48,492 bases of DNA from Candidatus Merdivicinus faecavium (GTDB lineage Bacteria; Bacillota; Clostridia; Oscillospirales; Ruminococcaceae), in the NCBI GenBank assembly GCA_018716285.1, contig DVKD01000037.1, positions 1 to 48,492 of the forward strand, read 5' to 3'. Under the pieces are notes generated by a model that was not told where the DNA came from, made no database searches, and saw nothing but the letters and a program-made list of their open reading frames with translations. Position 1 is the first letter of the stretch; every line of letters starts with the position of its first letter. The position numbers were made by a program, and so were the translations under genes. This document shows, piece after piece, positions 1,135 through 13,193 of this stretch.

Positions 1135-3692
1135 CCCTTCGCCTGATACCAGTTTTTGCCCTGGTGGATGTCGACGCACAGCTTGACCGGCAGGTCGGCT
1201 GCCCGTTCCATCTCTTCCTTGACGATCTCCATCACCCGGCCCGCTTCCTCCTCGCGCGCCTCGACCAGCAGCTCGTCGTGGACCTGTAAAATCAGCCGGG
1301 ATTTGAGCCCCTCGTCCCGCAGGCGGCGGTAGACCCGGATCATCGCAAGCTTGATGATGTCGGCGGCCGTTCCCTGGATGGGCATGTTCATGGCGACCCG
1401 CTCGGAAAAGCCGCGCAGCGCCGGCTTCTTGGAATGGATGTCGGGCAGGTAGCGGCGGCGGTGGAAGATGGTTTCCACATACCCGTTCTGCCGGGCGCTC
1501 TCGACCGCATTTTTCATATAGGAATCGACCCCGCTGTAGGTGCGGAGATAGTCGTCGATATACTGCTTGGCCTCCTTGACGGTGACGTGGATGTCCTGGG
1601 AGAGGGAAAAGGCCGAGATGCCGTAGACGATGCCGAAATTGATGGCCTTGGAACGGCTGCGCAGCTCGGCCGGCACCTCGTCAAAGGGGATGTGGAAGAC
1701 CTGGGAGGCGGTCATCCGGTGGATATCCGCGCCCTTTGCAAAGCCCTCGATCATATGCCGGTCGCCGGAAACGGCGGCCAGCACCCGCAGCTCGATCTGG
1801 GAATAGTCCGCGTCGACCAGGGTGCAGCCCGCTTTTGCCACAAAGAATTTGCGCATCTCCGCCCCGAGCTCGGTGCGGACCGGGATGTTCTGGACGTTCG
1901 GGTCTGAGGAGCTGATCCGGCCGGTGCGGGTCTCGGTCTGGTTGAAGGTGGAGCGGACCCGCCCGTCCGGCTGGATGCATTTTTTGAGCCCCACAACATA
2001 GGTGCTCGACAGCTTGGAGAGCTTGCGGTATTCAAGGATCTTGCCGACGATTGGGTGGTAGGGCAGCAGCTTTTCCAGCACATCCACATCGGTGGAATAG
2101 CCCGTCTTGGTCTTTTTTCCGGGGGGCAGGCCGAGCTCGCCGAAGAGGATCTCGGAGAGGTGGGCAGGGGAATTGGGGTTGAAGGGGCGGCCGGCCAGCT
2201 CCATCAGTTCGGCGCGGAGCCGTTCAATCTGTTCGTCGAGGATAGCCCCGAACTCGCTGATCCCGGCCTCGTCGACGAGAAAGCCCTCCTCCTCCATCGA
2301 CGCCAGCACCTCGCAGAGCGGGCGCTCGATTTCCCGGTAGAGGAACTCCATCCGCCGTTCCGCCAGGATCTCATTCATCGCGTCAAAGAGGCTGCCGAGC
2401 GCCGCCGCGTCCCGCAGCTCCTCCGGGAACTCCTCGATAGTGGGACAGTAGGAACGGCAGAGCTCCGGGATCGGGTACGTTTTGTCCGAGCTGCTCAAAA
2501 GGTAAGCCTGCAGTTTGACGTCTTCGAGCTCCCCCGCATAGGCGATCTGTTCCCGCATGGCGAAGCGGTAGACCGGCTTTGCATCATAGGTGATCTTCGG
2601 AAGGCCGCAGCCCAGCATTTCGGCCAGGATCTCCCGGATATTCCCCGTGTTGACCGCAAATTTCCGCCCGCCCAGATGGGTGCAGAGGCGGATCGGTTCG
2701 CCCCCTTCAAAGGTGAGGAGGAAGGTCCAGCGCCCGCACTGCTCCACGAACGGGAGAAGGGAGGACGGCTCGCGGACGATCTCGCAGGGGGGAAGCGCCG
2801 GCGCGGTCAGCGGGAGCTGTTCTTCCTCCTGTTCGGAAAGGCCGAGACTCTCGAGGACTGAGGTCAGCTCATATTTGCGCAGGAATTCCCGCAGCGCGCC
2901 GTCCTGCCGCTGCTTCTGCGACAGGAGCTCCGGGTTGAAGTCGAGCGGCACCCGGCGGTTGATTTCGCCGAGGGTATGGCTCAAAAGCGCCTCCTCCCGG
3001 TGCTCGGCAATGAGCTTTTTGATGCGGGGGGTCGCCTGGATGGAGTCGAGGTTGTCGAGGATATTTTGCAGGCTCCCATTCTGGGAGATGAGGGCCAGGG
3101 CGGTTTTCTCGCCGATCCCCTTGACGCCGGGGATGTTGTCGGAGGTGTCGCCCATCAGCGATTTGACCTCTATAAGCTGGCGCGGCTCGATGCCGTAAGT
3201 CTCCCGCACCTTCTCCGGCGTGTAGAGGACGTCGCCCTGGTTGGTGGCAAGGCTGACCGTCACCCGGTCGGAGACAAGCTGGAGGGAATCCCGGTCGCCG
3301 GTCGCGAGGATGCAGGTGCAGCCGGGGTGGCTGTCCGCGTAGGCGGAAACCGTCCCGAGGATATCGTCGGCCTCGTAGCCCTCGACGCCGATTACCGTCC
3401 CGCCGGCCAGCTCGACGAACTCCCGGCCGAGCGGCATCTGAGGCCGCAGCTCGTCCGGCATGGGGGAGCGGGTGCCCTTGTAGGCGTCGTAGAGCTTGTG
3501 GCGGAAGGTGGGAGCGCGCAGGTCGTAGGCCGCGACGACCACATCCGGGCAGTGCGCCGCAAGCAGCTTCTGGTAGGTCTTGGTAAAGCCGAAGAGGGCG
3601 TTGGTTTCAAAGCCGTCCTTGGTGGAAAGATGGCGGATGGCGTAAAAGGAGCGGTTCATGAGCGAATTGTAATCTATGGCAAGAATTTTCAT
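1131..3692 (-). CDS. polA: DNA polymerase I, 3'-5' exonuclease domain apparently inactive
   Basis: An 853-residue repair and Okazaki-fragment polymerase. Residues 1 to about 290 form the 5'-3' exonuclease (FEN) domain, with EGYEADDILGT, ATGDRDSLQLV and LMGDTSDNIPGVKGIGEKTA. The polymerase domain shows motif A (DADYSQIELR, about residues 625-635), motif B/O-helix (RSRSKAINFGIVYG, about 676-690) and motif C (QVHDELLVEA, about 802-811). The middle region (about 310-440) keeps the exonuclease fold outline, but the DxE of ExoI is replaced by a TFEGGEP-like sequence and the ExoIII Y-x3-D is not visible. Proofreading is therefore probably lost, as in Bacillus and Thermus enzymes. ATG 3692 has AGAAAGGA nine bases upstream. 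It heads the operon running to tsaD. Confidence 0.98.
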   Translation of the reverse strand: MKILAIDYNSLMNRSFYAIRHLSTKDGFETNALFGFTKTYQKLLAAHCPDVVVAAYDLRAPTFRHKLYDAYKGTRSPMPDELRPQMPLGREFVELAGGTVIGVEGYEADDILGTVSAYADSHPGCTCILATGDRDSLQLVSDRVTVSLATNQGDVLYTPEKVRETYGIEPRQLIEVKSLMGDTSDNIPGVKGIGEKTALALISQNGSLQNILDNLDSIQATPRIKKLIAEHREEALLSHTLGEINRRVPLDFNPELLSQKQRQDGALREFLRKYELTSVLESLGLSEQEEEQLPLTAPALPPCEIVREPSSLLPFVEQCGRWTFLLTFEGGEPIRLCTHLGGRKFAVNTGNIREILAEMLGCGLPKITYDAKPVYRFAMREQIAYAGELEDVKLQAYLLSSSDKTYPIPELCRSYCPTIEEFPEELRDAAALGSLFDAMNEILAERRMEFLYREIERPLCEVLASMEEEGFLVDEAGISEFGAILDEQIERLRAELMELAGRPFNPNSPAHLSEILFGELGLPPGKKTKTGYSTDVDVLEKLLPYHPIVGKILEYRKLSKLSSTYVVGLKKCIQPDGRVRSTFNQTETRTGRISSSDPNVQNIPVRTELGAEMRKFFVAKAGCTLVDADYSQIELRVLAAVSGDRHMIEGFAKGADIHRMTASQVFHIPFDEVPAELRSRSKAINFGIVYGISAFSLSQDIHVTVKEAKQYIDDYLRTYSGVDSYMKNAVESARQNGYVETIFHRRRYLPDIHSKKPALRGFSERVAMNMPIQGTAADIIKLAMIRVYRRLRDEGLKSRLILQVHDELLVEAREEEAGRVMEIVKEEMERAADLPVKLCVDIHQGKNWYQAKG

Positions 3693-3738
3693 CCAGCAAA
3701 ATCCTTTCTGGCGTCAGGCGGCAGCCCGGCCATATGCC

Positions 3739-3755
3739 CTGTGAAAAGTTCACAG
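3739..3755. repeat. 17-base palindrome in the polA leader
   Basis: CTGTGAA-AAG-TTCACAG is a perfect 7-bp inverted repeat with a 3-base centre. It lies between the polA start codon (3692) and the polA promoter (-10 at 3810-3815), and just upstream of the dusB -35 box (3775). It could be an operator for either gene or a short hairpin in the polA 5' leader; the sequence does not decide. Confidence 0.5.
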
Positions 3756-3774
3756 TTTCGTTTCCGGCCCTGCC

Positions 3775-3803
3775 TTGACAGTCCCACAGTTTTCCATTAT
3801 AAT
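3775..3803 (+). promoter_or_regulatory. sigma-A promoter for dusB
   Basis: Consensus TTGACA at 3775-3780 and TATAAT at 3798-3803 with a 17-base spacer, pointing at dusB. Transcription should start near 3810, giving a leader of roughly 100 bases. Confidence 0.85.
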
Positions 3804-3809
3804 ATATCC

Positions 3810-3838
3810 ATTATAGCATATTTTTCACCCCGATACAA
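3810..3838 (-). promoter_or_regulatory. sigma-A promoter for polA
   Basis: On the minus strand TTGTAT (3833-3838) and TATAAT (3810-3815) are separated by exactly 17 bases and point at polA. Its -10 box is only six bases from the -10 box of the divergent dusB promoter, so the two promoters should interfere with each other. Confidence 0.75.
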
Positions 3839-3913
3839 CGGAAATCGCGCGGATCTGAACTCCCAAAAGGGAAGTCTCAGCCGCTTACGCTGATAAAAAG
3901 AAGGAAGATTTTT

Positions 3914-4888
3914 TTGAACACCATCCAGATTGGAAACGTGACGATAAAGAAAACCGCCGCCCTCGCGCCGATGGCTTCGGTCGCCGACCGGGCCTACCGC
4001 GAAATCTGCAAGGAATACGGGGCGGCTTATGTGGTGGGGGAACTGACCTCGGCGAAGGCCCTGACCTTCTCCGACCGCAAGAGCGAGGAGCTCTTAATGC
4101 TCTCGGCCCAGGAGCGCCCCGCTGCCGCCCAGCTTTTCGGCAGCGACCCCGCGGACATGGCGAAAGCGGCGCAGGTCGCCCTCAAATACCGGCCGGACAT
4201 CCTGGACATCAACATGGGCTGTCCGGTCCCCAAAGTCGTCTCGGGCGGCGCAGGCTCGGCCCTGATGAAAACGCCGGAGCTCGCCGCCGAAATTGTCCGC
4301 GCCGTCAAGGCGGTCTGCCCGGTGCCGGTCACCGTCAAGATCCGCAAGGGCTGGAACGAGGATACGGTCAACGCCGTCCCCTTTGCCAGGCTCATGGAGG
4401 AGGCCGGGGCAGACGCCATCACCGTCCACGGCCGCACCCGCAGCCAGATGTACCGCCCTTCCGCCGACTGGACCATCATCAAGGCGGTCAAGGAGGCGGT
4501 CAGCATCCCGGTCATCGGCAATGGGGACATCCTCACCGCCGCCGACGCGGTGCGGATGTATGAGGAAACCGGCTGCGACCTGGTCATGATCGGGCGGGGA
4601 AGCTACGGCAACCCCTTCCTTTTTCGGGAGATTGCCCAGTATCTGGAGACCGGCATCCTCCCGCCGCCGCCCGATCTCGAGGAGAAGCTGGAGGTCATGA
4701 AGCGGCACATCCGGCTGACCGTCTCCTATAAAGGCGAGTACATCGGGATGCGGGAAAGCCGCAAGATCGCCGCCTATTACATCAAAGGCATCCCCGGAGC
4801 CGCCAAGTTCCGCAACGCCTGCGGCGCCCTCACCAGTCTCGACGACCTCGACGCCCTCATCGCCGTCCTCAAGATGCAGAAGCGGTAG
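3914..4888 (+). CDS. dusB: tRNA-dihydrouridine synthase (DusB-type)
   Basis: A 324-residue FMN enzyme that reduces uridines in the D-loop of tRNA. The N-terminal TIM barrel shows [13 protein letters not shown] (FMN site), [11 protein letters not shown] with the catalytic Cys, [24 protein letters not shown] and [13 protein letters not shown], all diagnostic of the DusB/NifR3 group. The C-terminal helical tRNA-binding part contains [18 protein letters not shown]. The start is TTG at 3914, with AAGGAAG before it; no ATG fits. It is divergent from polA and shares its control region. Length is normal for the family. Confidence 0.95.
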
Positions 4889-4926
4889 GGAGGGGCGCCT
4901 TCCAAAAACAGCTTGAGGTGAGCAAA

Positions 4927-5336
4927 ATGAAAAAAGAGTACCGCACCATCCCCGCGTCCATGAAGCAGATGGAGACCTACGGCTTTTCCTGGATGGATAC
5001 GGTTTTGAGACAGATGAAATTGCCGCGTCCGGCCTCACCGCGGAAGAAGCGTCGGCAGTCGACGCCCCCCGCATCCGGGAGTGCTTCCTCAACCTCGAGT
5101 GCCGCTACCTGTGGGAGCGCGAAATTGCCGAAGGCAGCGCGCATGTCGTGCTCTGCCTGGAAGTTGTGAATATCTGTGCCGACGAGGGCCGTCTGGACGA
5201 AGCCGCGCAGGGCAGATATGGCCCGGACGGCTATCTCTATGACGTGCATTACCCGGTCGACCCCGAAACATACGCCGGGAAATCGCACGACTGGCTCGCC
5301 GTTCTGCAAAAGTACCGGGATATGGGGGAGTATTGA
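4927..5336 (+). pseudogene. remnant of a flavin reductase-like gene (internal deletion and frameshift)
   Basis: Two reading frames must be joined to make sense. From ATG 4927 (GAGGTGA upstream) the protein begins MKKEYRTIPASMKQMETYGF and then goes out of frame at about 4985-5010. The other frame, from about 4999 to the TGA at 5334, reads YGFETDEIAASGLTAEEA, then PRIRECFLNLECRYLWEREI, HVVLCLEVVNICADEG and finally HDWLAVLQKYRDMGEY. The second part resembles the C-terminal half of flavin reductase-domain proteins (the NLEC and EVVN-ADE patterns). The central FMN-binding core found in intact members of roughly 190-250 residues is missing. I infer a decayed gene rather than programmed frameshifting, because a large piece is absent as well. 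A sequencing error could explain the frameshift but not the missing core. Confidence 0.7.
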
Positions 5337-5368
5337 CCCTTTCATTCTTATTTCAGGAGGGATTTTCC

Positions 5369-6268
5369 ATGAAATTCAGGCCCATCTCCAGCGATCTGCT
5401 CACCGCCCGCCTTGAACCGCCCAAACCGGGCTGCCGGCTGGTCCTCGACACCGACACCTACAACGAAATCGACGACCCGTTCGCGCTGGTCTACGCCCTC
5501 CGCTCGCCCGAGCTCCGGCTGGAGGCCGTCTACGCCGCGCCCTTCCACAACGACCGCTCGGACGGGCCGAAAGACGGCATGGAGCGGAGCTACGGACAGA
5601 TCTGCGAAATTCTGGAACTGCTCGGGGAAGAGCGCCCGGTCTTCCGCGGCTCGGAGCGGTGGATGACCGGCCCGGACGACCCGGTCGATTCCCCGGCGGC
5701 GCGGGACCTCATCGCGCGGGCCATGTCGTCGGAGGAGCCGCTCTACGTCGCGGCCATCGGCGCGCCGACCAACGTCGCCTCCGCCATCCTGCTCGAACCG
5801 GCGATCCGGGAAAAGATCACCGTCGTCTGGCTGGGCGGGCACGGGCTGCACATGCCCAAAACAGACGAATTCAACATGGCCCAGGATTATTACGCCTCCC
5901 GCGCGCTGCTGGAATCCGGCGTCCCGCTGGTACTGCTGCCCTGCAACGGCGTCGTCAGCCATCTGCTCATCACCATTCCCGAGCTGGAAACCACCCTGGC
6001 CGGGAAAGGGAAGTGCGGGCAGTACCTTTTGGACATCACTCGAGATTATATGCAGAAGCATCCCTGCGCCTCCAAGGTCATCTGGGACATCGCGACCATC
6101 GGCTGGCTCTGCAATGCCGGCTGGTACCAAAGCCGCCTTATCCCAAGCCCGGTTCTGAACCCGGATATGACCTATTCCGTCAGCGAGGACCCGGAGCGGC
6201 ACCCGATCCGATATATCAATTTCCTGTCCCGCGACCAGATTTTTGAGGATCTGTATCAGAAAATGTGA
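5369..6268 (+). CDS. nucleoside hydrolase family protein
   Basis: A 299-residue protein of the inosine-uridine-preferring nucleoside hydrolase fold, which cleaves the N-glycosidic bond of ribonucleosides. The metal-binding N-terminal motif is LDTDTYNEIDDPFAL, a longer variant of the classical DTDxGxDDxxAL. Later parts include VWLGGHGLHM, EFNMAQDYYASRALLESGVP and VIWDIATIGWL, where the Asp near the end matches the last calcium ligand. The base specificity cannot be read from the sequence. ATG 5369 has AGGAGG nine bases upstream; the longer frame upstream lacks a ribosome site. It lies downstream of the flavin reductase remnant and ends at a strong terminator. Confidence 0.88.
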   Translation: MKFRPISSDLLTARLEPPKPGCRLVLDTDTYNEIDDPFALVYALRSPELRLEAVYAAPFHNDRSDGPKDGMERSYGQICEILELLGEERPVFRGSERWMTGPDDPVDSPAARDLIARAMSSEEPLYVAAIGAPTNVASAILLEPAIREKITVVWLGGHGLHMPKTDEFNMAQDYYASRALLESGVPLVLLPCNGVVSHLLITIPELETTLAGKGKCGQYLLDITRDYMQKHPCASKVIWDIATIGWLCNAGWYQSRLIPSPVLNPDMTYSVSEDPERHPIRYINFLSRDQIFEDLYQKM

Positions 6269-6280
6269 CGAAAAAATGGA

Positions 6281-6321
6281 AAACAGCCCTCCCGTTGCAG
6301 CTGTCAGCGGGAGGGCTGTTT
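6281..6321. terminator. bidirectional terminator
   Basis: AAACAGCCCTCCCG (6281-6294) pairs perfectly with CGGGAGGGCTGTTT (6308-6321). It has A-rich sequence on the left and T-rich sequence on the right, so it can end both the nucleoside hydrolase transcript and the convergent recombinase transcript, whose stop codon abuts it. Confidence 0.9.
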
Positions 6322-7313
6322 CATTTCTTTTTGCGGTGATAATTTGCGAGCGGGTTGCTGGCCATCGCGTCTTCCTTCTGGACATCGGCGACATGGGTGT
6401 AGATTTCGGTGGTGTTGAGGTGCTCGTGGCCCAGAATTTCCTGCAGGACTTTGACGTCGACATTTCCGTACTGGTACATCATCGTCGCGGCAGTGTGACG
6501 AAGCTTGTGGGTCGAAAAGCCCATGTTGGAGAGCCCGGCCTTCTGAAGCAGTTCCGTGATGATCTGCTGGATGCGCCGCTGTCCCAGGCGGCGGCCCTGC
6601 CGGTTGAGAAAGAGCGCGTCCTGGTCGACAATTTTGGTATACTCTTTGCGCTCCTCCAGATAGTCTCGGAGGGCGTCCATACAGGCCTCATTCAAATAGA
6701 GGATCCGCTCTTTGTTGCCTTTCCCGAGGACGCGGAGGGTGTTGTCCCGGAAACTGGCGACGTTTAAGCCGGACATCTCCGAGAGCCGCATCCCGCAGTT
6801 CAAAAACAGGATCACCATACAGTAATCCCGACGGTAGTGCGGATCGGCCGGATCCAGCGCGCCCAGCAGTTCGTAGCACTGTTCCAGATTCAGGTACGCC
6901 GGCAGCGCCTTTTTGGTGGCCGGGAGCTCGAGGTTCTCGACCGGGTTCGTTTGGAGCAGGCGGACATTATTGGTCAGATATTTATACAGTCCGCGGATCG
7001 CCGAAACCTTGCGGGCGCGGGTATTGGCGTTGTTGGATTTTTCGGAAAAGACGTAGTTCAGAAACTCGTAGACGTCCGAAAGGCTCGCGGATCCGACCAG
7101 CTCGACGCTGGAATCTGAAATATCGATCTCCTCGAGCGGCGTGTCCCGCGGCACCAATCCCTTTTGCAGATGCAGGAAGCGCAGGTAGGTGCGCAGGTCG
7201 ATGTAATAGCCTTCGACCGTCAGCTTGGAGCGGCCTTTGATCGTCAGCATGTAAAAGAGATAGTCCCTTAAAAAGCCGGGACAATCGGTATAATCACTGG
7301 TGGTATAAGACAT
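6321..7313 (-). CDS. XerC-type tyrosine recombinase
   Basis: A 330-residue two-domain tyrosine recombinase. The N-terminal SAM-like core-binding domain (about 1-125) is followed by the catalytic domain. Catalytic residues visible are Arg176 (GMRLSEMSGL), a beta-strand Lys in GKGNKER (198 or 201), His269/Arg272 (THKLRHTA), His296 (LGHEHL) and the nucleophile Tyr305 (TEIYTH). This matches XerC/XerD-like proteins of Clostridia, which may serve chromosome dimer resolution or a mobile element. The start at 7313 has CAGGAGGGA eight bases upstream. An att-like palindrome (7343-7369) lies in its upstream region. Whether it is the housekeeping Xer or a paralogue is undecided, so no symbol is given. 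Confidence 0.9.
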   Translation of the reverse strand: MSYTTSDYTDCPGFLRDYLFYMLTIKGRSKLTVEGYYIDLRTYLRFLHLQKGLVPRDTPLEEIDISDSSVELVGSASLSDVYEFLNYVFSEKSNNANTRARKVSAIRGLYKYLTNNVRLLQTNPVENLELPATKKALPAYLNLEQCYELLGALDPADPHYRRDYCMVILFLNCGMRLSEMSGLNVASFRDNTLRVLGKGNKERILYLNEACMDALRDYLEERKEYTKIVDQDALFLNRQGRRLGQRRIQQIITELLQKAGLSNMGFSTHKLRHTAATMMYQYGNVDVKVLQEILGHEHLNTTEIYTHVADVQKEDAMASNPLANYHRKKK

Positions 7314-7342
7314 GCGGAATCCCTCCTGAAAAAGCGGCTCTC

Positions 7343-7369
7343 AATTTCGCGAAATAAGTAATTTAGCGA
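7343..7369 (+). repeat. att-like site A (left)
   Basis: AATTTCGC, ten bases, then ATTTAGCGA: two imperfectly inverted arms around a short centre, the layout of a tyrosine recombinase crossover site. It is close to site B (9220-9249) read on the other strand and shares ATTTAGCGA with site C (9709-9724). It lies in the upstream region of the minus-strand recombinase gene. It is not the canonical Firmicutes dif sequence. Confidence 0.5.
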
Positions 7370-7381
7370 GCAAAAGCGGGT

Positions 7382-7434
7382 GGGCGGCGGCGGCGGCTTT
7401 ACAATCTCGTCCGCAGACGCTGCCGCCGCCGCCC
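7382..7434. repeat. GC-rich 13-bp inverted repeat, possible origin structure
   Basis: GGGCGGCGGCGGC (7382-7394) is matched exactly in reverse by GCCGCCGCCGCCC (7422-7434) with 27 bases between. It lies about 180 bases upstream of rep inside the putative element. A strong cruciform or single-strand hairpin here would suit a replication origin or single-strand initiation signal, but that is inference. Confidence 0.5.
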
Positions 7435-7474
7435 GTCCGCGTTGCGCAAATTCTGCGGAGCCAAGGCGACCAAT

Positions 7475-7495
7475 CGCGGCGCGGCGGCTGAGGGC
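7475..7495 (+). repeat. 21-bp inverted repeat, left copy
   Basis: The sequence begins CGCGGCGCGGCGG and ends CTGAGGGC, and is found in perfect reverse complement at 9172-9192. It sits 140 bases upstream of the Rep start, so the pair brackets all three element genes. Confidence 0.8.
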
Positions 7496-7579
7496 GGTGT
7501 GCCGGTCAGCGCACACTGCAGCACCGTGCAAGGGCGCGGCCCGCAGGGCCTGTGCCCGCAGCCGGTGCGGACGGTGCGT

Positions 7580-7595
7580 ATACTTGACTAAGTAT
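7580..7595. repeat. palindrome just upstream of rep
   Basis: ATACTT-GACT-AAGTAT, a 6-bp perfect stem with a 4-base loop, ends 19 bases before the Rep start codon. It could be an operator for Rep autoregulation or a nick-site hairpin (CTTGACTA faintly recalls the CTTGATA nick of pC194-type plasmids). Position is seen; role is guessed. Confidence 0.4.
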
Positions 7596-7614
7596 CATAA
7601 AGCGGGAAATCGTT

Positions 7615-8376
7615 GTGCAGGGAAAGTATCGGCAGGACTACGCGGTCGTGAAGCGCTACGGCGTGTCCGGGCTGGAAAAGCTGGTGTATTTCAAAACGCC
7701 GGTGCGGCAGAAGGACGCCGGGCCGGTGAAGCGCGGCGAGGGCGGCGGCGAGAAGCTCGACAACAACATCGCCCGTGCGCGGGCGGTGGTCAAGGAACTG
7801 GCGCTCTGCAACGAGTGGGAGCTTTTCGGTTCGTTCACGCTCTCGCCGGAAAAGTACGATCGGGACGATCTGGCGCTGTTCCGGAAGGATTTCAGCCAGT
7901 TTCTGCGGGATTGCCGCAAGAAGTACGGGGGAAAATGGCAGTACCTGCTCATTCCTGAGCCGCACGAGAAAGGCGGCTGGCACATGCACGGGCTGCTCGG
8001 CGGTGTGCCGAGTATTGCCCTCCGGCCCTTCTCCGTCGACGAGAACATTCCGGAGCGGTTGAAAAAGTCCATCCGGGAGGGCTGTGCAATTTACGACTGT
8101 GAAGCATACCGGCGGCGGTTCGGCTGGGTTACGCTGTCGCCCATCCGCGACAAGGTGGCGTGCAGCAGCTACATCGTCAAATACATCAGCAAAGACCTGA
8201 CAAAGCGGGCAGAATCGGTCGGGCAGCACCTTTACTATGCGTCTCAGGGGCTGGCGAGGGCGGAGAAGATTTACGAAGGGAGCGTGCTACTTAAGGAATG
8301 CGACTATGAGAACGACTATGTGAAAATCCTGTGGAGCAACGGGGAAAACTATGGGAACGTGGTCTATCTCGACTGA
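7615..8376 (+). CDS. HUH endonuclease, rolling-circle replication-associated protein
   Basis: A 253-residue Rep of the HUH superfamily, which nicks one DNA strand and stays attached through tyrosine to start rolling-circle replication. Motif I is FGSFTLSPEKYD (about 71-82), the metal-binding HUH is GGWHMHGLLGG (His123, His125), and the catalytic Tyr region is YIVKYISKDL (Tyr186 with Lys189 and Tyr190). The N-terminal LDNNIARARAVVKELALCNE matches a family of small Reps I know from Clostridia genomes that has no assigned biology. The start is GTG 7615 with a weak GGGAAA upstream; an in-frame stop at 7585 rules out a longer form. The recombinase gene follows after 37 bases. Confidence 0.85.
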   Translation: MQGKYRQDYAVVKRYGVSGLEKLVYFKTPVRQKDAGPVKRGEGGGEKLDNNIARARAVVKELALCNEWELFGSFTLSPEKYDRDDLALFRKDFSQFLRDCRKKYGGKWQYLLIPEPHEKGGWHMHGLLGGVPSIALRPFSVDENIPERLKKSIREGCAIYDCEAYRRRFGWVTLSPIRDKVACSSYIVKYISKDLTKRAESVGQHLYYASQGLARAEKIYEGSVLLKECDYENDYVKILWSNGENYGNVVYLD

Positions 8377-8413
8377 GGGAAAGGCCGGAAGTTGACAGTT
8401 TCAGGAATGTGAA

Positions 8414-8950
8414 GTGGGTGAAAAGATGCAGGCAGAATACTATTTCAAGCGGGAGATCGAGCACATACTGGCGGCACTGATGCCCGCGAACCGGCTGGCG
8501 CTCGAAGTGTCGCTGGCGACGGGCCTTCGAATCGGCGACGTGCTGGCGCTCAAGGCCGAGGACGTGCGCAAAGGCCGCTGGACGGTGCAGGAAGCCAAGA
8601 CGGGCAAGCGGAAGGCCGTGAGACTGACCAAGGAGCTACAGGCGCGCTGTCTGGCGCTGGCGGGGCCTGTGTACGTCTTTTCGGGGCGGCTGGACGGGAT
8701 GCATCCGAGGACGCGGCAGGCGGTCTGGAAAGACCTGAACCGGGTGGCGAAGGTGTTCCGGCTCAAGGTGAACCTCACGCCGCACAGCATGCGGAAGGTG
8801 TACGCGGTTGAGCAATACCACAAGAGCCGCGACCTCAAGCGGGTACAGAAATTGCTCAACCACTCGAGCGAAGCGGTCACGATGCTCTACGCAATGGCAG
8901 ATCAACAGGTACGGAAGAAGCTGGGAGGTATTGGCGATGAAGAACTCTAA
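8414..8950 (+). CDS. tyrosine recombinase/integrase, catalytic domain only
   Basis: Only 178 residues, about half the usual integrase length, because the N-terminal arm- and core-binding domains are missing. The catalytic set is complete: Arg39 (TGLRIGDV), a Lys in EAKTGKRK (62 or 65), His124/Arg127 (TPHSMRK), His150 (LLNHSSEA) and Tyr159 (TMLYA). It probably inserts and excises the element by acting at the flanking palindromes. The start could be GTG 8414 (AGGA seven bases upstream) or ATG 8426 (GGGTGA upstream); the alternative shortens it by four residues. It follows rep, and the next gene begins within its last codons. Confidence 0.85.
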   Translation: MGEKMQAEYYFKREIEHILAALMPANRLALEVSLATGLRIGDVLALKAEDVRKGRWTVQEAKTGKRKAVRLTKELQARCLALAGPVYVFSGRLDGMHPRTRQAVWKDLNRVAKVFRLKVNLTPHSMRKVYAVEQYHKSRDLKRVQKLLNHSSEAVTMLYAMADQQVRKKLGGIGDEEL

Positions 8951-9146
8951 CCGGGCGAAAATCAATGTCATGCAGTGGGTGCTGCGCTCCATGATTGCGA
9001 CCTTTGACGGCGAGGAGGTGCCGGACAAGATTCGCGACTCGGCACTGTTTGTGGCTGACTGGCTCGAATCGGTAGGATGCGACCTTTCTCTAATTGGCAA
9101 TGAGGTTGTCGCTAGGTTCCTTGACAACGGCGACGATCTGCGGTAG
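8937..9146 (+). CDS. small hypothetical protein of the mobile element
   Basis: A 69-residue protein I do not recognise. It begins MKNSNRAKINVMQWVLRSMI and is mixed helical, with a basic N-terminus and an acidic C-terminus (ARFLDNGDDLR). ATG 8937 has GGGAGGT eight bases upstream, and the gene overlaps the 3' end of the recombinase gene by 14 bases, so coupled translation is likely. By position it may help the recombinase (a directionality factor) or Rep, but no helix-turn-helix pattern is clear enough to claim it. The strong ribosome site and the overlap support it being a real gene. Confidence 0.65.
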   Translation: MKNSNRAKINVMQWVLRSMIATFDGEEVPDKIRDSALFVADWLESVGCDLSLIGNEVVARFLDNGDDLR

Positions 9147-9149
9147 AAT

Positions 9150-9164
9150 GTAACTGCGAGTTAC
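9150..9164. repeat. short palindrome after the last element gene
   Basis: GTAACT-GCG-AGTTAC is a perfect 6-bp stem with a 3-base loop, four bases after the stop of the small gene and eight bases before the right copy of the 21-bp repeat. No T tract follows, so it is unlikely to be an ordinary terminator. Confidence 0.4.
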
Positions 9165-9171
9165 GCACTGA

Positions 9172-9192
9172 GCCCTCAGCCGCCGCGCCGCG
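9172..9192 (-). repeat. 21-bp inverted repeat, right copy
   Basis: Exact reverse complement of 7475-7495. Only 28 bases separate it from the att-like site at 9220. Confidence 0.8.
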
Positions 9193-9219
9193 CACCTTGT
9201 TTGCTTGTCTTGGCGGAGC

Positions 9220-9249
9220 GAATTTCGCTAAATTTATATTTTGCGAAAT
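9220..9249 (-). repeat. att-like site B (right)
   Basis: GAATTTCGCTAAATTT at 9220-9235, followed by TTGCGAAAT at 9241-9249, forms two inverted arms. Its first 16 bases are the exact reverse complement of site C at 9709-9724. Read on the minus strand it aligns with site A (ATTTCGC, spacer, ATTTAGCGA) with one base difference in spacer length. Confidence 0.5.
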
Positions 9250-9708
9250 AATGCCTACCTGGAAAATAGCCGGCTTCCCCGGGCGTTGTCAGCTGGGACA
9301 GCCGGTCGAGTTTTACGAGCACAGCAGATAAACTGCAAACCAGGTTCTCTCTATACGGCATATACAGTTCCCCGGGCGTTTCACGCCAAAGCATCCGACA
9401 CTGCCGCCGATTGCGTCGCGCTGTGCAAAACCCGCGGCCGACACGCAAGCCCGATCAAATGCCGGTCCGACAGACGATTCGCCAGCATCCGGGATCTCCC
9501 AACGCCACCGCAGAAGCGCAGGTCCCAGACGGTAACAGTAAAGCCGTATAAACCTTGCGGATCACAGAAGCTGCGAAAGCTTCAGCCGGCTCCGTCCAAC
9601 TGCTGCCGCGATGCCGGGGAATCGACCGGTCTTTGGCGCAATCACGCAGAGAAGATCATACAGAGACCGGCCTATCTGCGAATGGTTAGGAAGCCTGCTT
9701 TTTTCATA
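9250..9708. other. gene-free block between att-like sites B and C
   Basis: About 460 bases with no convincing gene. The only open frame runs through into the Nudix region on the wrong strand and has no ribosome site. CCCCGGGCGTT occurs twice about 100 bases apart (near 9278 and 9372). No promoter, tRNA or known RNA family was recognised. It is bounded by 16-bp inverted copies of the att-like sequence, so it may be leftover sequence from the element or a second decayed insertion. Confidence 0.5.
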
Positions 9709-9724
9709 AAATTTAGCGAAATTC
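9709..9724 (+). repeat. att-like site C inside the 3' end of the Nudix gene
   Basis: AAATTTAGCGAAATTC, the reverse complement of 9220-9235. On the minus strand it encodes the last residues and stop of the Nudix protein (GAA TTT CGC TAA = E-F-R-stop). Integration at the 3' end of a gene while keeping its coding sequence is a common habit of tyrosine recombinases. Confidence 0.5.
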
Positions 9725-10192
9725 AAATACGCTCTCCGCCGTATCCGATTTGGACCAGGCGGAATGCGCCTCGAAGACGCTGTCGTCTAAAAACAGCCGC
9801 AGATAGACGCGGAAATACGGGGCGAGCTTGTCGTCCGGCTGGTCGAGCAGCTCCTGCATGTCCATCCAGAACACTTCGCCTTCCTCTGTCCGTTCCAGCA
9901 GCTCTCCAGAAAAGTTTTCTGTTTTATACAAATATACGATGTACTGTTCCCCGTCGTCCAGGCAGTCCCAGTGGATGATGCCGCAGAGGCGGAGATCTGC
10001 GGCCGTCAGCCCGGTCTCCTCAAAGACCTCCCGGGCGGCCGACCCAGCGAAGCTCTCCCCTACCTCAACGTGACCGCCGGGGAAGGCGTAGCCGGTCCAG
10101 TACTTTTCCCGTTTCTGCACAAGGACCTTGCCGGTGGCGGGGTCTGTGACCATGCACATATTGGTCTGCTCCAGCGGTAATTTTCTGCCCAT
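9713..10192 (-). CDS. Nudix hydrolase (MutT/8-oxo-dGTPase-like)
   Basis: A 159-residue Nudix hydrolase cleaving nucleoside diphosphates linked to another group. The Nudix box is complete: GGHVEVGESFAGSAAREVFE then ETGL. YWTGYAFPGGHVE before it and the YIVYLYKTENFSGEL strand after it resemble 8-oxo-dGTP diphosphatase-type members, but the substrate is not proven. I chose ATG 10192 because AAGGAG lies six bases upstream; the longer frame has no ribosome site. Its final codons and stop coincide with an att-like repeat (9709-9724), so the present C-terminus (ESVFEFR) may have been supplied or preserved by an integration event. Confidence 0.85.
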   Translation of the reverse strand: MGRKLPLEQTNMCMVTDPATGKVLVQKREKYWTGYAFPGGHVEVGESFAGSAAREVFEETGLTAADLRLCGIIHWDCLDDGEQYIVYLYKTENFSGELLERTEEGEVFWMDMQELLDQPDDKLAPYFRVYLRLFLDDSVFEAHSAWSKSDTAESVFEFR

Positions 10193-10224
10193 TTTAACTC
10201 CTTTGCAAAATGCAAAATGCACAA

Positions 10225-10256
10225 AAGCAAGAGCCTGAACCGACAGGCTCTTGCTT
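10225..10256 (-). terminator. terminator after gatB
   Basis: AAGCAAGAGCCTG and CAGGCTCTTGCTT form a 13-bp perfect stem with a 6-base loop, ten bases after the gatB stop. The minus strand continues TTTGTGCATTTTGC, a modest T tract. It also separates the gat operon from the Nudix gene. Confidence 0.8.
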
Positions 10257-10266
10257 ATTTCTGCCA

Positions 10267-11703
10267 TTACCCTTCGAGAATCTTCAGCAGCATTTCCTTC
10301 ATCAGGGCGGGGTTCCCCTTTCCCTTGGAGGCCTTCATGCACTGACCGACGAGGAAGCCGAGGGCGTTGGTCTTGCCGCCGCGGTAGTCGTCGATCGACT
10401 TCTGGTTGGCCGCCGCGACGCTGTCGACGATGGCCTGCAGGGCGGCGGTGTCGGAGACCTGTTCAAGCCCCAGCTCCTTGACGAGGTCGGCGGGCGATTT
10501 GCCGGTCTTGCGCATCTCCTCAAAGACCTGCTTCGCGGCCGAGCTGGAGATGCGGTTTGCCTCCTGCATGGCGATAATCTCGGCGAGCTGCGCAGGATCG
10601 ACGCCCAGCTCGGTGATCGGCTTGCCCGTCTCGTTCATCAGGCGGGAGACGTCGCCGAGCACCCAGTTGGAGGCGCTTTTGGGTTTGATTTTTCCTGCCG
10701 CCAGGATCTGCTCGAAGAAATCCGTCTTCTCGCAGGTTTCGGCGAGGAGGGACGCGTCCTCCTCCGGGAGGCCCAGCTCGCGGATGTAGCGCACTTTCTT
10801 GCGGTTGGGCAGTTCCGGGATGGATGCCTTCAGCCCGTCGAGGTAGTCCTGCTCGAGCACGATGGTCAGCAGGTCCGGCTCAGGGAAATAGCGGTAATCC
10901 TGGGCATTTTCCTTGCTGCGCAGCAGGAAATTCTGCCCCTTCAGGTCATCCCAACGGCGGGTTTCCTGGGAAATCTCCCCGCCGCTTTCCAGCACCTCGA
11001 TCTGGCGGTTCGCCTCGTATTCGATGGCGCGGACTGCGCCGCTGAAGGTGTTGACGTTCTTCATCTCGACCCGGTTGCCGAAGGGCTCGCCGGGCTTATG
11101 GACGGAGACGTTGATGTCGCAGCGGATCGACCCCTCCTGCATCTTGCAGTCGGAGATGCCCAGGTATTCCAGGATGGATTTGATGGTGTCGAGGTAGGCT
11201 TTGGCCTCCGCAGTGCTGTGCAGGTCCGGCTCCGAGACGATCTCGATGAGCGGCACGCCGCAGCGGTTGAAGTCGACCAGCGTGCCGGTGAAGCTGTCGT
11301 CATGGATGAGCTTGCCCGCGTCCTCCTCAATGTGGATGCGGGTGATGCCGACCCGCTTCTCCGCCCCGTCGACCCAGATGTCGAGGTAGCCATTCTCGCA
11401 CAGCGGGATGTCGAACTGGGAAATCTGGTAGGCCTTGGGCAGGTCGGGATAGAAATAGTTCTTGCGGTCCTGCTTGCTGACCGGATGGACGGTGCAGTTT
11501 AAGGCGTAGCCCATCCGGGCGGCGTACTCCACCACCTTTTCGTTCAAGGTGGGCAGGGTGCCGGGCATGCCCATGCAGACCGGGCAGCACTGGGTATTGA
11601 CTTCCTTGCCGAAGGCGTTGCGGCAGCCGCAGTAGATTTTGGAAGCGGTATTCAGTTCTGCGTGGACCTCAAGGCCCACGACAAGCTCATAATCGTGTTT
11701 CAT
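10267..11703 (-). CDS. gatB: Asp/Glu-tRNA(Asn/Gln) amidotransferase subunit B
   Basis: A 478-residue subunit of the GatCAB complex that converts misacylated Glu-tRNA(Gln) (and Asp-tRNA(Asn)) to the correct aminoacyl-tRNA. GatB phosphorylates the substrate and binds the tRNA. Visible landmarks are YELVVGLEVHAELNTASKIY, the zinc-binding CGCRNAFG...CCPVC cysteines, PVCMGMPGTLP, KNYFYPDLPKAYQISQFD, and the C-terminal YqeY-like tail with GGKTNALGFLVGQCMKASKG. ATG 11703 has GGGGAG eight bases upstream; the slightly longer frame lacks one. It is last in ligA-gatC-gatA-gatB. Its presence suggests that the organism lacks a glutaminyl-tRNA synthetase, as is usual in Firmicutes. Confidence 0.97.
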   Translation of the reverse strand: MKHDYELVVGLEVHAELNTASKIYCGCRNAFGKEVNTQCCPVCMGMPGTLPTLNEKVVEYAARMGYALNCTVHPVSKQDRKNYFYPDLPKAYQISQFDIPLCENGYLDIWVDGAEKRVGITRIHIEEDAGKLIHDDSFTGTLVDFNRCGVPLIEIVSEPDLHSTAEAKAYLDTIKSILEYLGISDCKMQEGSIRCDINVSVHKPGEPFGNRVEMKNVNTFSGAVRAIEYEANRQIEVLESGGEISQETRRWDDLKGQNFLLRSKENAQDYRYFPEPDLLTIVLEQDYLDGLKASIPELPNRKKVRYIRELGLPEEDASLLAETCEKTDFFEQILAAGKIKPKSASNWVLGDVSRLMNETGKPITELGVDPAQLAEIIAMQEANRISSSAAKQVFEEMRKTGKSPADLVKELGLEQVSDTAALQAIVDSVAAANQKSIDDYRGGKTNALGFLVGQCMKASKGKGNPALMKEMLLKILEG

Positions 11704-11729
11704 ATCTTCTCTCCCCTTCATGCAGTCGG

Positions 11730-13193
11730 TTATGCGAGCGTGCGGCTCAGGTCAAAGCCGCCCAGCGTCTTTTCCCAGCAGGAGGCGGCCCGGAACAGGG
11801 TCGATTCGCTGAATTTCGGGCCGATGAGCTGCGCGCCGATGGGCATCGGCTTGCTGTCGAAGCCGCAGGGCAGGCTCATGCCGGGCAGGCCGGCGATGTT
11901 GACGGTGACGGTGAGGATGTCGTTCATGTACATCTTGATCTGGTCGTCGATATTCTCGCCCAGCTTGAAGGCGGTGTCAGGCACCGTCGGGGTGAGGAGC
12001 AGGTCGCACTTGTCAAAAGCGGCGGCAAATTCCTGCTGGATGCGCAGCTGGGTGAATTTCGCCTTCTTATAATAGGCGTCATAGTAGCCGGAGCTCAGCA
12101 CATAGGTGCCGAGCATGATGCGGCGCTTGACCTCCGCACCGAAGCCCTCGCTTCTCGTCTTTTCGTACATTTCGGTGAGGTTTGCAAAATCCTTGGCGCG
12201 GTAGCCGTACTTGACCCCGTCGAACCGGGCCAGGTTGGAGGAGGCTTCCGCCGACGCGATGATGTAATAGGCCGAGAGGGCGTAGTCGGTGCTGGGGAGG
12301 GAAATCTCGACGAGCTCAGCGCCCTGCGCTTCCAGTTCCTTTGCCATCTTCATGACCGCGTCCCGGACCTCGGCGGAGACGCCTTCGCCGAAATATTCCT
12401 TCGGCAGGCCGATGCGCAGGCCCTTGATATCCGGGGTGATCTCCTTCGCGAAGTCGGGGTATTCCCGCAGAGCGGAAGTCGCGTCGTGATTGTCCCGGCC
12501 GCAGATCGCGCCGTAAAGCATGGCGACGTCCCTGACGCTCCGGCCCATCGGCCCGATCTGGTCGAGGGAGGAGGCAAAGGCGACGAGGCCGTACCGGGAA
12601 ACCGAGCTGTAGGTGGGCTTTAAGCCCACAATGCCGCAGTAGGCCGCGGGCTGGCGGATGGAGCCGCCGGTATCCGAACCGAGGGCGAGGACCGCCTCCC
12701 CTGCCGCGACCGCCGCAGCGCTGCCACCGGAGGAACCGCCGGGCACCCGCTCGAGGTCAAAGGGGTTGCGGGTCTTCTGAAAATAGGAGGTTTCGGTGGA
12801 AGAGCCCATCGCGAACTCGTCCATATTGAGCTTGCCGAGCATGACGGCGCCGGCAGCGTTTAACTTCTCCATGACAAAGGCGTCGTAAGGCGGGACGAAG
12901 TTCTCGAGCATCCGGGAAGAACAGGTTGTCCGCACCCCTCTGGTGCAGATGTTGTCCTTGATGCCGATCGGGATGCCGGCGAGGGGATGGAGCGCCTCCC
13001 CTGCCGCACGGCGGGCGTCAATTTCCGCCGCCTGTTTGAGGGCTTCCTCCCCGCAGATGGTGACGTAGGCCGCGATTTCGGGCTCCTTCTGCTCCATGCG
13101 GGAGAGCACCGAACGGGTGACCTCCTCGCTCGAGCATTCCCGGGCGGCGAGCATGGCGGAGAGCTTCTCCGCTGTCAGCTGATATAATTCCAT
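11730..13193 (-). CDS. gatA: Asp/Glu-tRNA(Asn/Gln) amidotransferase subunit A
   Basis: A 487-residue amidase-signature protein, the glutaminase subunit of GatCAB that frees ammonia from glutamine. The Ser-cisSer-Lys triad is visible as Lys in GIPIGIKDNIC, and the serines in VPGGSSGGSAAAVAAG and LGSDTGGSIRQPA. Further family stretches are GIVGLKPTYSSVSRYGL and MLGTYVLSSGYYDAYY. It begins with ATG 13193, 20 bases after the gatC stop, with AAAGGGG about ten bases before it. Length and domain order are normal. Confidence 0.97.
   Translation of the reverse strand: MELYQLTAEKLSAMLAARECSSEEVTRSVLSRMEQKEPEIAAYVTICGEEALKQAAEIDARRAAGEALHPLAGIPIGIKDNICTRGVRTTCSSRMLENFVPPYDAFVMEKLNAAGAVMLGKLNMDEFAMGSSTETSYFQKTRNPFDLERVPGGSSGGSAAAVAAGEAVLALGSDTGGSIRQPAAYCGIVGLKPTYSSVSRYGLVAFASSLDQIGPMGRSVRDVAMLYGAICGRDNHDATSALREYPDFAKEITPDIKGLRIGLPKEYFGEGVSAEVRDAVMKMAKELEAQGAELVEISLPSTDYALSAYYIIASAEASSNLARFDGVKYGYRAKDFANLTEMYEKTRSEGFGAEVKRRIMLGTYVLSSGYYDAYYKKAKFTQLRIQQEFAAAFDKCDLLLTPTVPDTAFKLGENIDDQIKMYMNDILTVTVNIAGLPGMSLPCGFDSKPMPIGAQLIGPKFSESTLFRAASCWEKTLGGFDLSRTLA

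What the first reader, a model, noticed from the sequence alone, without database searches (positions are those of the whole stretch)
7343..9249. Compact integrated element combining an HUH Rep with a catalytic-domain-only tyrosine recombinase
About 1.9 kb holds only three genes: a rolling-circle Rep (HMH at residues 123-125, Tyr186/Tyr190 region), a 178-residue tyrosine recombinase with all catalytic residues but no DNA-arm domain, and a 69-residue protein. No capsid or mobilisation genes are present. A unit that both replicates by rolling circle and integrates by tyrosine recombination with so little baggage would be an unusual lifestyle, perhaps a satellite relying on another element. I know Reps of this family occur widely in Clostridia but know of no described biology.
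Basis: partly seen in the sequence, partly recalled or inferred. Interest (0 to 1): 0.72.

Follow-up and report, generated by a model that had tools for sequence, protein, structure and literature searches.

The report
Mini-plasmid lodged at chromosome's dif site
A 1.9-kb rolling-circle element sits in the site where this bacterium separates its daughter chromosomes, beside the cell's own recombinase gene; relatives of its small recombinase occur at the same kind of site in other bacteria and on free circular gut plasmids, which suggests a counterpart, in another group of bacteria, of the way the cholera-toxin phage inserts itself.

Summary
In detail: Rep (REP_ORF2-G2P; HMH 123-125, Tyr186/190), a 178-aa catalytic-domain-only tyrosine recombinase ("mini-Int") and a 69-aa ORF form a mobile unit, about 7344-9221. 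In four same-genus genomes that dif (identical in three, one base changed in one) lies 19-32 bp from xer with nothing between. In two near-finished relatives dif lies opposite dnaA. A mini-Int profile hit 14 of 394 genomes of the order; in 8 the gene is within 2 kb of xer, in 3 more near a dif-like palindrome, in 3 neither was seen. Seven free circular rat-cecum plasmids carry mini-Int with other Rep families. Five of 14 mini-Int elements scanned carry two dif-like sites 76-145 bp apart, one with a normal and one with a stretched spacer, resembling the folding attachment site of CTXphi; the window is not among the five, though its joined ends fold strongly. Best reading: a CTXphi/RS1-like Xer-exploiting element that also brings a minimal recombinase. 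The dif-inserted mobile element is well supported; single-strand integration and the mini-Int's role are inferred.

The parts
6321..7313 (-). Host Xer-type tyrosine recombinase (330 aa), the dif-linked xer gene
   Evidence: PF00589 plus SAM-like N-terminal domain; orthologues of 76-92% identity in 5 same-genus genomes; only match in the own draft genome at E<=1e-3 is itself
7344..7372 (+). Xer-proximal junction: dif-like site ATTTCGCGAAA-TAAGTAA-TTTAGCGAGCA, read with a 7-bp spacer; outer bases of the right arm differ from dif
   Evidence: sequence; empty sites; sites of relatives
7376..7440 (.). GC-rich hairpin (22-bp stem), apex of the predicted folded end; could also be part of a replication origin
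   Evidence: helices; inverted repeat I3
7475..7495 (.). Arm of a 21-bp stem that pairs with 9172-9192 when the ends are joined
   Evidence: (I1)
7615..8376 (+). HUH rolling-circle Rep, REP_ORF2-G2P family
   Evidence: best matches in the phage collection are Inoviridae in the two records opened
8414..8950 (+). mini-Int: catalytic-domain-only tyrosine recombinase, catalytic residues intact
8937..9146 (+). 69-aa protein of unknown role; start overlaps the mini-Int end
9172..9192 (.). Other arm of the 21-bp stem
9222..9249 (+). Intact chromosomal dif site ATTTCGCTAAA-TTTATA-TTTTGCGAAAT
9250..9711 (.). Second, separate insert distal to dif; longest ATG ORF read there 48 aa, variable content in congeners
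9712..9722 (+). Half-site TTTAGCGAAAT closing the second insert

Best explanation
A small rolling-circle plasmid-like or satellite-like element integrated at the host's chromosome-dimer-resolution site (dif). Shown by sequence: it separates a host xer gene from its dif, congeners have the empty site, and its recombinase clade recurs at dif in other hosts and on free circles. Inferred: Rep makes single-stranded circles; the att region of that strand folds so that two inverted dif-like sequences pair into one mismatched dif; the host Xer exchanges one strand at the bases shared next to an arm; replication completes the insertion. This leaves an intact dif at the mini-Int end of the element and a diverged, presumably unusable site at the Rep end. 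The mini-Int, an intact catalytic domain without the DNA-clamp domain, most likely joins the host Xer as a second, asymmetric partner and so helps a near-symmetric Xer/dif system accept the element. That last step is the least certain.
For: dif identity: 30 of 100 relatives have the 28-bp site at <=3 mismatches, one locus each, reversed-pattern control 0; of the 29 loci other than the window, 25 have the xer start within about 270 bp; it lies opposite dnaA in G026 and G057, the 2 of 3 genomes searched where both lie on one contig. Mobility: empty sites in 4 same-genus genomes; Rep in 0 of 6 same-genus genomes. Recurrence: 14 of 394 genomes hit at E<=1e-20; mini-Int within 2 kb of xer in 8 of 14. 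One and only one AAA-N6-TTT 11-6-11 palindrome in 11 of 14 mini-Int loci, none in 3 (L120, L123, L124); none in 5 of 5 loci with other short recombinases. Free circles: 7 plasmid records. Two-site att, unbroken in circles L091, L092, L096 and at joined ends of G198, G144 (pair score 17-18, reached by 0 of 200 shuffles of each). Single-strand folding of the natural circles: z -4.1, -9.1, -5.3; joined ends: window -7.9, G198 -10.5, G144 -9.2, G266 -9.3, G151 -6.4, G154 -3.9, G031 -2.6. CTXphi att as described in PMC4246890 (passages).
Against: The two-site scan finds no pair in 10 of 15 sequences: window, G031, G154, G266, G151, L090, L093, L094, L095 and the Rep-only circle L100; in G266 and G151 both kinds of site are visible in a looser listing. 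An earlier scan without the core motif separated less well: L091 scored 17, and one shuffle of L094 also reached 17 (10 shuffles per circle). The window's fold rests on GC-rich stems that could be a replication origin. G198's internal control also folds well (z -4.7) and the native L116 stretch is weak (z -2.5, 2 of 200 shuffles as good). No reads, circular junction or biochemistry; one draft genome. Nothing shows that host Xer acts on the element or that mini-Int is needed: inovirus-like inserts at the same locus (G008, G011) showed no mini-Int match in the stretches read, so Xer alone may suffice.
Confidence: 0.57

Rival explanations
1. mini-Int is the sole integrase: a minimal stand-alone tyrosine recombinase that recognises dif-like arms and integrates double-stranded circles; host Xer is not needed and dif is only a conserved target.
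For: Catalytic residues invariant in 10 aligned members; element sites follow dif arms that differ between hosts; the recombinase is constant while Rep families vary.
Against: No core-binding domain, which most characterised relatives use to clamp DNA (recalled); two sites with unequal spacers suit ordinary double-strand exchange poorly; inserts without a detected mini-Int use the same locus.
Confidence: 0.22
2. mini-Int is a multimer resolvase or copy-control recombinase of free circles; insertion at dif is an occasional by-product of dif-like plasmid sites used by host Xer.
For: Seven free circles carry it; three show the dif-like pair and four do not.
Against: Integrated copies at dif in several genera; empty sites.
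Confidence: 0.12
3. The window copy is an inert remnant of an older dif-integrated phage or plasmid.
For: Junction site at 7344-7372 differs from dif; no two-site pair found in the window; p69 has no convincing relatives.
Against: Rep and mini-Int frames intact with their motifs; ends still form a 21-bp stem; absent from the 6 other same-genus genomes searched, so probably recent.
Confidence: 0.09

Closest known systems
CTXphi-type IMEX and its satellite RS1 (PMC4246890, passages)
   Same: Insertion at dif; small Rep-bearing unit (RS1 content recalled); in five scanned relatives two inverted dif-like sites, one with a 6-bp and one with a 9-12-bp spacer, in foldable single strands.
   Different: Host has a dif-linked Xer, only one Xer being found in the own draft; the element codes for its own catalytic-domain recombinase; Rep families vary; the window copy did not pass the two-site scan.
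LME-1 at the XerL/dif site of Legionella (PMC9765430, abstract and passages)
   Same: Mobile element at the dif of a single-recombinase system; modified dif at one end, wild-type at the other.
   Different: Other bacteria and another element; the passages seen describe use of the host recombinase and mention no mini recombinase.
XerS/difSL and XerH/difH single-recombinase systems (PMC5357621, passages)
   Same: One Xer acting on one dif; XerS is genetically linked to difSL.
   Different: Other bacteria; the Xer here is named by sequence only.
Gut inoviruses Dulem virus 69 and bajarodino virus 5
   Same: Among the best matches of the window Rep in the phage collection (32% and 38% identity).
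   Different: They carry Zot and further genes; the window unit has none of these.
Rat-cecum circular plasmids pRGI/pRGF (PMC3913684, passages)
   Same: Circles of 2.2-3.8 kb with a mini-Int of 37-54% identity.
   Different: Rep_1 (5), RepL (1) or Rep_OBD/RepB_C (1) instead of REP_ORF2-G2P; hosts unknown.

Membership tests
IMEX (integrative mobile element exploiting Xer) | Integrated at the host dif site | tested here: met
IMEX (integrative mobile element exploiting Xer) | Carries a dif mimic as attachment site | tested here: met
   dif-like site 7344-7372; relatives and three free circles
IMEX (integrative mobile element exploiting Xer) | Integration by the host Xer machinery | not testable with these tools
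   needs biochemistry or genetics; the element also codes for its own recombinase
CTXphi-type IMEX | Two inverted dif-like sites about 90 bp apart, one with a 5-7-bp and one with a long central region, folding as ssDNA | tested here: inconclusive
   met in 5 of 15 sequences by strict scan, window not among them; window ends fold strongly (z -7.9) in another layout
CTXphi-type IMEX | Integrated form has an intact dif at one end and a changed site at the other (in the passages seen for LME-1 and GGI, PMC9765430; recalled for CTXphi) | tested here: met
   intact dif at 9222, diverged site at 7344; same polarity relative to Rep and mini-Int in G031, G144, G151, G154, G198, G266. That the changed site is unusable is inferred
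Single-recombinase Xer/dif system (host locus) | One Xer with a linked, single, terminus-proximal dif | tested here: met
   one xer-like match in the own genome (draft, 95% complete); single site; opposite dnaA in 2 relatives. Against generality: A. senegalensis (G151) has a second, XerD-like gene next to xer
Rolling-circle (HUH) replicon | HUH and catalytic Tyr motifs in a Rep family | tested here: met
   nicking not tested
Inovirus satellite | Depends on a helper phage for transfer | not tested
   only circumstantial: tandem arrangement in G154
Integron | Cassettes with a foldable attC next to a recombinase gene | tested here: not met
   joined ends of 5 dif-distal inserts do not fold beyond shuffles (z -1.3 to 0.5)

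The most novel reading that the evidence does not exclude
A widespread family of tiny gut plasmids and satellites inserts single-stranded DNA into dif of bacteria with a dif-linked Xer, and brings a catalytic-domain-only recombinase that turns a one-recombinase Xer system into a two-recombinase one for the purpose; recombinase and folded att are the constant module onto which unrelated Rep genes are swapped.
Probability: 0.34. Interest if true: 0.8.

Novelty: new variant of a known kind. Interest (0 to 1): 0.64.

Why it matters
It would extend CTXphi-like ssDNA integration to a group of gut Clostridia with a dif-linked Xer, and to plasmids rather than phages. It poses a clean question: can a recombinase without the DNA-clamp domain act only in partnership with a host Xer? 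It also gives dif markers for many of these genomes and a reading for seven unexplained circular rat-gut plasmids. In the rows shown by searches of the held paper library (listings capped, at worst 12 of 1,369 papers) I saw no title or abstract on such elements in Clostridia or on a mini-recombinase of an Xer-exploiting element; most subscription papers are not held.

Tried and rejected
Integron-like cassettes: variable inserts lie distal to dif in the window, G003, G005, G006 and G035, and the two ends of the window's insert looked complementary, but joined ends did not fold beyond shuffles in any of the five, so the idea was dropped. Element ending at the 9712 half-site: rejected, since the intact dif at 9222 separates two inserts. 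Viral-contig scans with Rep (four loci, 33% over residues 111-195) and with mini-Int (none confirmed) added nothing. The first structure model, from three sequences, was poor (pLDDT 50) and was not used; the second, from 12, was (pLDDT 87). p69: no convincing relatives. The G070 loci (L082, L083) and the Subdoligranulum Rep stretch (L099) were fetched but not placed at dif; L082 and L083 have no palindrome of the dif type, L099 was not scanned. Of the 14 mini-Int genomes, G256, G282 and G119 gave neither xer nor a dif-type palindrome on the stretch read; G282 and G119 are contigs of 4.2 and 3.3 kb. On re-check I widened the palindrome count from the 10 loci, which were chosen after the sites were known, to all 14 plus five controls, and scanned the Reps not scanned before. 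Confidence and novel-case odds were lowered by 0.01 after these checks.
Full report
WHAT IS THERE. The window is contig C22 of an unnamed 2.66-Mb draft genome. Between 7344 and 9221 lie a HUH Rep (PF23343), a 178-aa tyrosine recombinase and a 69-aa ORF, all on the + strand. The recombinase is a catalytic domain only: Pfam coverage starts at residue 13, the open frame is 184 aa, a profile of 12 relatives matches PDB Xer proteins in their C-terminal domains (XerD 1a0p 132-278, XerH 5jjv 184-356), and the AlphaFold model (mean pLDDT 87) finds integron integrase, XerH, lambda integrase and XerA chains as best folds (TM-score by query length 0.67-0.73).

THE TARGET IS dif. The gene left of the unit (6321-7313, minus strand) is a full-length Xer. 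In same-genus genomes G001, G003 and G005 the sequence 19-32 bp before its start codon is ATTTCGCTAAA-TTTATA-TTTTGCGAAAT, and in G006 the same with one base changed; no Rep or mini-Int lies there. In the window that exact site is 1.9 kb away at 9222-9249, and a diverged copy stands at 7344. G002 (no orthologue found) and G004 (contig ends inside xer) could not be judged. Across 100 relatives the site occurs, at one locus each, in 30 genomes; the reversed control pattern in none. Of the 29 loci other than the window, 25 have the xer start within about 270 bp (two with a mechanically over-extended start), two about 1 kb away, and two show no xer on the stretch. In G026 dnaA is at 419 and the site at 2,048,765 of a 3,756,698-base contig (54.5% round); in G057 they are 1.67 Mb apart in a genome of about 3.3 Mb; in G019 they lie on different contigs. 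I therefore read it as the chromosomal dif. The own genome has a single Xer-like match, but it is a draft.

THE SAME RECOMBINASE CLADE RECURS AT dif. A profile of 10 mini-Ints searched in 394 genomes of the order hit 14 at E<=1e-20. In 8 (G000, G031, G083, G144, G151, G154, G198, G266) the gene lies within 2 kb of the xer gene. G334, G246 and G302 have the palindrome within about 1 kb but no xer on the fetched stretch; G256, G282 and G119 show neither. Scanned with one criterion, 11 of the 14 loci have exactly one AAA-N6-TTT 11-6-11 palindrome and 3 have none; 5 of 5 loci with other short recombinases have none; of ten further loci without mini-Int, the seven with a hit include six whose dif was already known and G011, where it lies 23 bp before xer. 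The arms differ between hosts (ATTTCGCTAAA, ATTATACAAAA, ACTCAACAAAA, CTTGCACAAAA and others).

DIFFERENT Rep GENES, FREE CIRCLES. Partner Reps are REP_ORF2-G2P in the window, G144, G154, G198, G246, G256, G266, G302 and G334; Rep_1 in G083, G119 and G151; Rep_OBD/RepB_C in G282; without a Pfam match in G031. Seven circular plasmid records carry a mini-Int of 37-54% identity, with Rep_1 in L091, L092, L094, L095 and L096, RepL in L090 and Rep_OBD/RepB_C in L093. That they come from rat cecum rests on their pRGI/pRGF names and the title of PMC3913684 (recalled link; the paper's passages were read); it reports that 38 of 40 tested circles gave the expected PCR product, and I do not know whether these seven were tested.

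att ARCHITECTURE. In several elements two dif-like sites occur: one with a 6-bp spacer and a right arm changed at its outer bases, and one with a stretched spacer. Free circles show both unbroken: L091 (1020 and 1165), L092 (2321 and 2406), L096 (1752 and 1828). Joined ends of G198 and G144 give the same pair. A core-motif scan of 15 sequences (14 with mini-Int plus the Rep-only circle L100) finds the pair in these 5; 0 of 200 shuffles of each reach the score. It finds none in the window, G031, G154, G266, G151, L090, L093, L094, L095 and L100; in G266 and G151 both kinds of site are visible with more mismatches. G083, G334, G246, G302, G256, G282 and G119 were not scanned. A first scan without the core motif was less clear-cut: scores 17-18 for L091, L092 and L096 against shuffle maxima of 14-17 over all eight circles. 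Folded as single-stranded DNA the natural circles give z -4.1 (L091), -9.1 (L092) and -5.3 (L096); the native G151 stretch is weak, -2.5. Joined ends: window -7.9, G198 -10.5, G144 -9.2, G266 -9.3, G151 -6.4, G154 -3.9, G031 -2.6; internal controls, in the same order, -1.1, -4.7, -1.9, -0.5, 0.7, 0.6, -1.7. In the folds of L091, L092, L096, G266 and G198, as I read them, an arm of one site pairs with an arm of the other and 2-4 spacer bases next to an arm are paired. PMC4246890 (passages) describes the CTXphi site alike: attP1 with a 12-bp central region, attP2 with 5-7 bp, 90 bp apart, inverted, folding as ssDNA, integration irreversible. In the window the layout differs: a 21-bp stem (9172-9192 with 7475-7495), a 9-bp stem, the dif-like site as a side hairpin and a GC-rich apex. 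Part of this could be a replication origin.

POLARITY. In the window, G031, G144, G151, G154, G198 and G266 the intact dif lies downstream of mini-Int and the changed site upstream of Rep. Relative to xer the window copy is inserted the other way round, which a near-palindromic dif allows.

PHAGES AT THE SAME PLACE. G008 has Zot and a REP_ORF2-G2P Rep between a half-site and dif. G011 has such a Rep and Zot beside xer and its dif-type palindrome. G154 has a mini-Int/Rep unit next to Rep_trans and Zot genes. The window Rep's best matches in the phage collection include Inoviridae. An inovirus-satellite origin is plausible, not shown.

MECHANISM. Shown: location, empty sites, recurrence, circles, foldable two-site att in some relatives. 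Inferred: ssDNA integration by host Xer, an unusable junction, mini-Int as partner. The alternative that mini-Int acts alone remains open.

NOVELTY. Xer-exploiting elements, dif of single-recombinase systems and LME-1 at XerL/dif are known (PMC5357621, PMC9765430, PMC4246890; passages). PMC3025954 (passages) predicts dif in 97 of 100 Firmicutes chromosomes and speaks of XerS, not of such elements in the passages seen. The rows shown by nine library searches, all capped listings, hold nothing on such elements in Clostridia; the one Clostridia inovirus paper opened (PMC10061712, term search only) has no hit for dif site, integrase, tyrosine recombinase, integration site or satellite.

Noticed in passing
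window 9250-9722; L046 (G006), L043 (G003), L044 (G005): Distal to dif the window and three congeners carry different inserts closed by the half-site TTTAGCGAAAT: a GNAT acetyltransferase in G005 (E 7.9e-13), a weakly nucleotidyltransferase-like gene in G003 (below Pfam's cut-off), no clear gene in the window and G006. They look like dif-targeted cargo without a recombinase.
   Followed up: partly
L119 (G154) 4844-12573: xer, dif, then a mini-Int/Rep unit directly followed by Rep_trans, Zot and a large exported-looking protein: possibly a satellite and a filamentous phage side by side, reminiscent of RS1 and CTXphi.
   Followed up: partly
L081 (G008) 1478-10519: A Zot-bearing inovirus-like stretch lies between a dif half-site and an intact dif; no mini-Int match in it.
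   Followed up: partly
L080 (G011) 5838-10150: REP_ORF2-G2P Rep and Zot genes beside the xer gene; palindrome ATTGCACCAAA-CTTACA-TTTGGTGCAAT at 6850, 23 bp before xer, is the likely dif.
   Followed up: partly
L049 (G083) 8261-12160 and L116 (G151) 3757-7738: Repeated mini-Int fragments and att sites, with a run of N in G083: apparently remnants of earlier insertions at dif.
   Followed up: no
L045 (G001) 8490 and 6382-7344: A perfect half-site also lies past the 3' end of xer, and two NUDIX genes stand in tandem distal to dif.
   Followed up: no
L084 (G035) 4238-5044: A 0.78-kb insert between dif and a half-site that repeats dif's right arm and flanking bases; a 127-aa ORF without a Pfam match above cut-off.
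   Followed up: no
L048 (G031) 7223-7305 and 11150-11232: An 83-bp direct repeat (94%) including a dif arm flanks the unit; the 322-aa partner Rep-like ORF has no Pfam match.
   Followed up: partly
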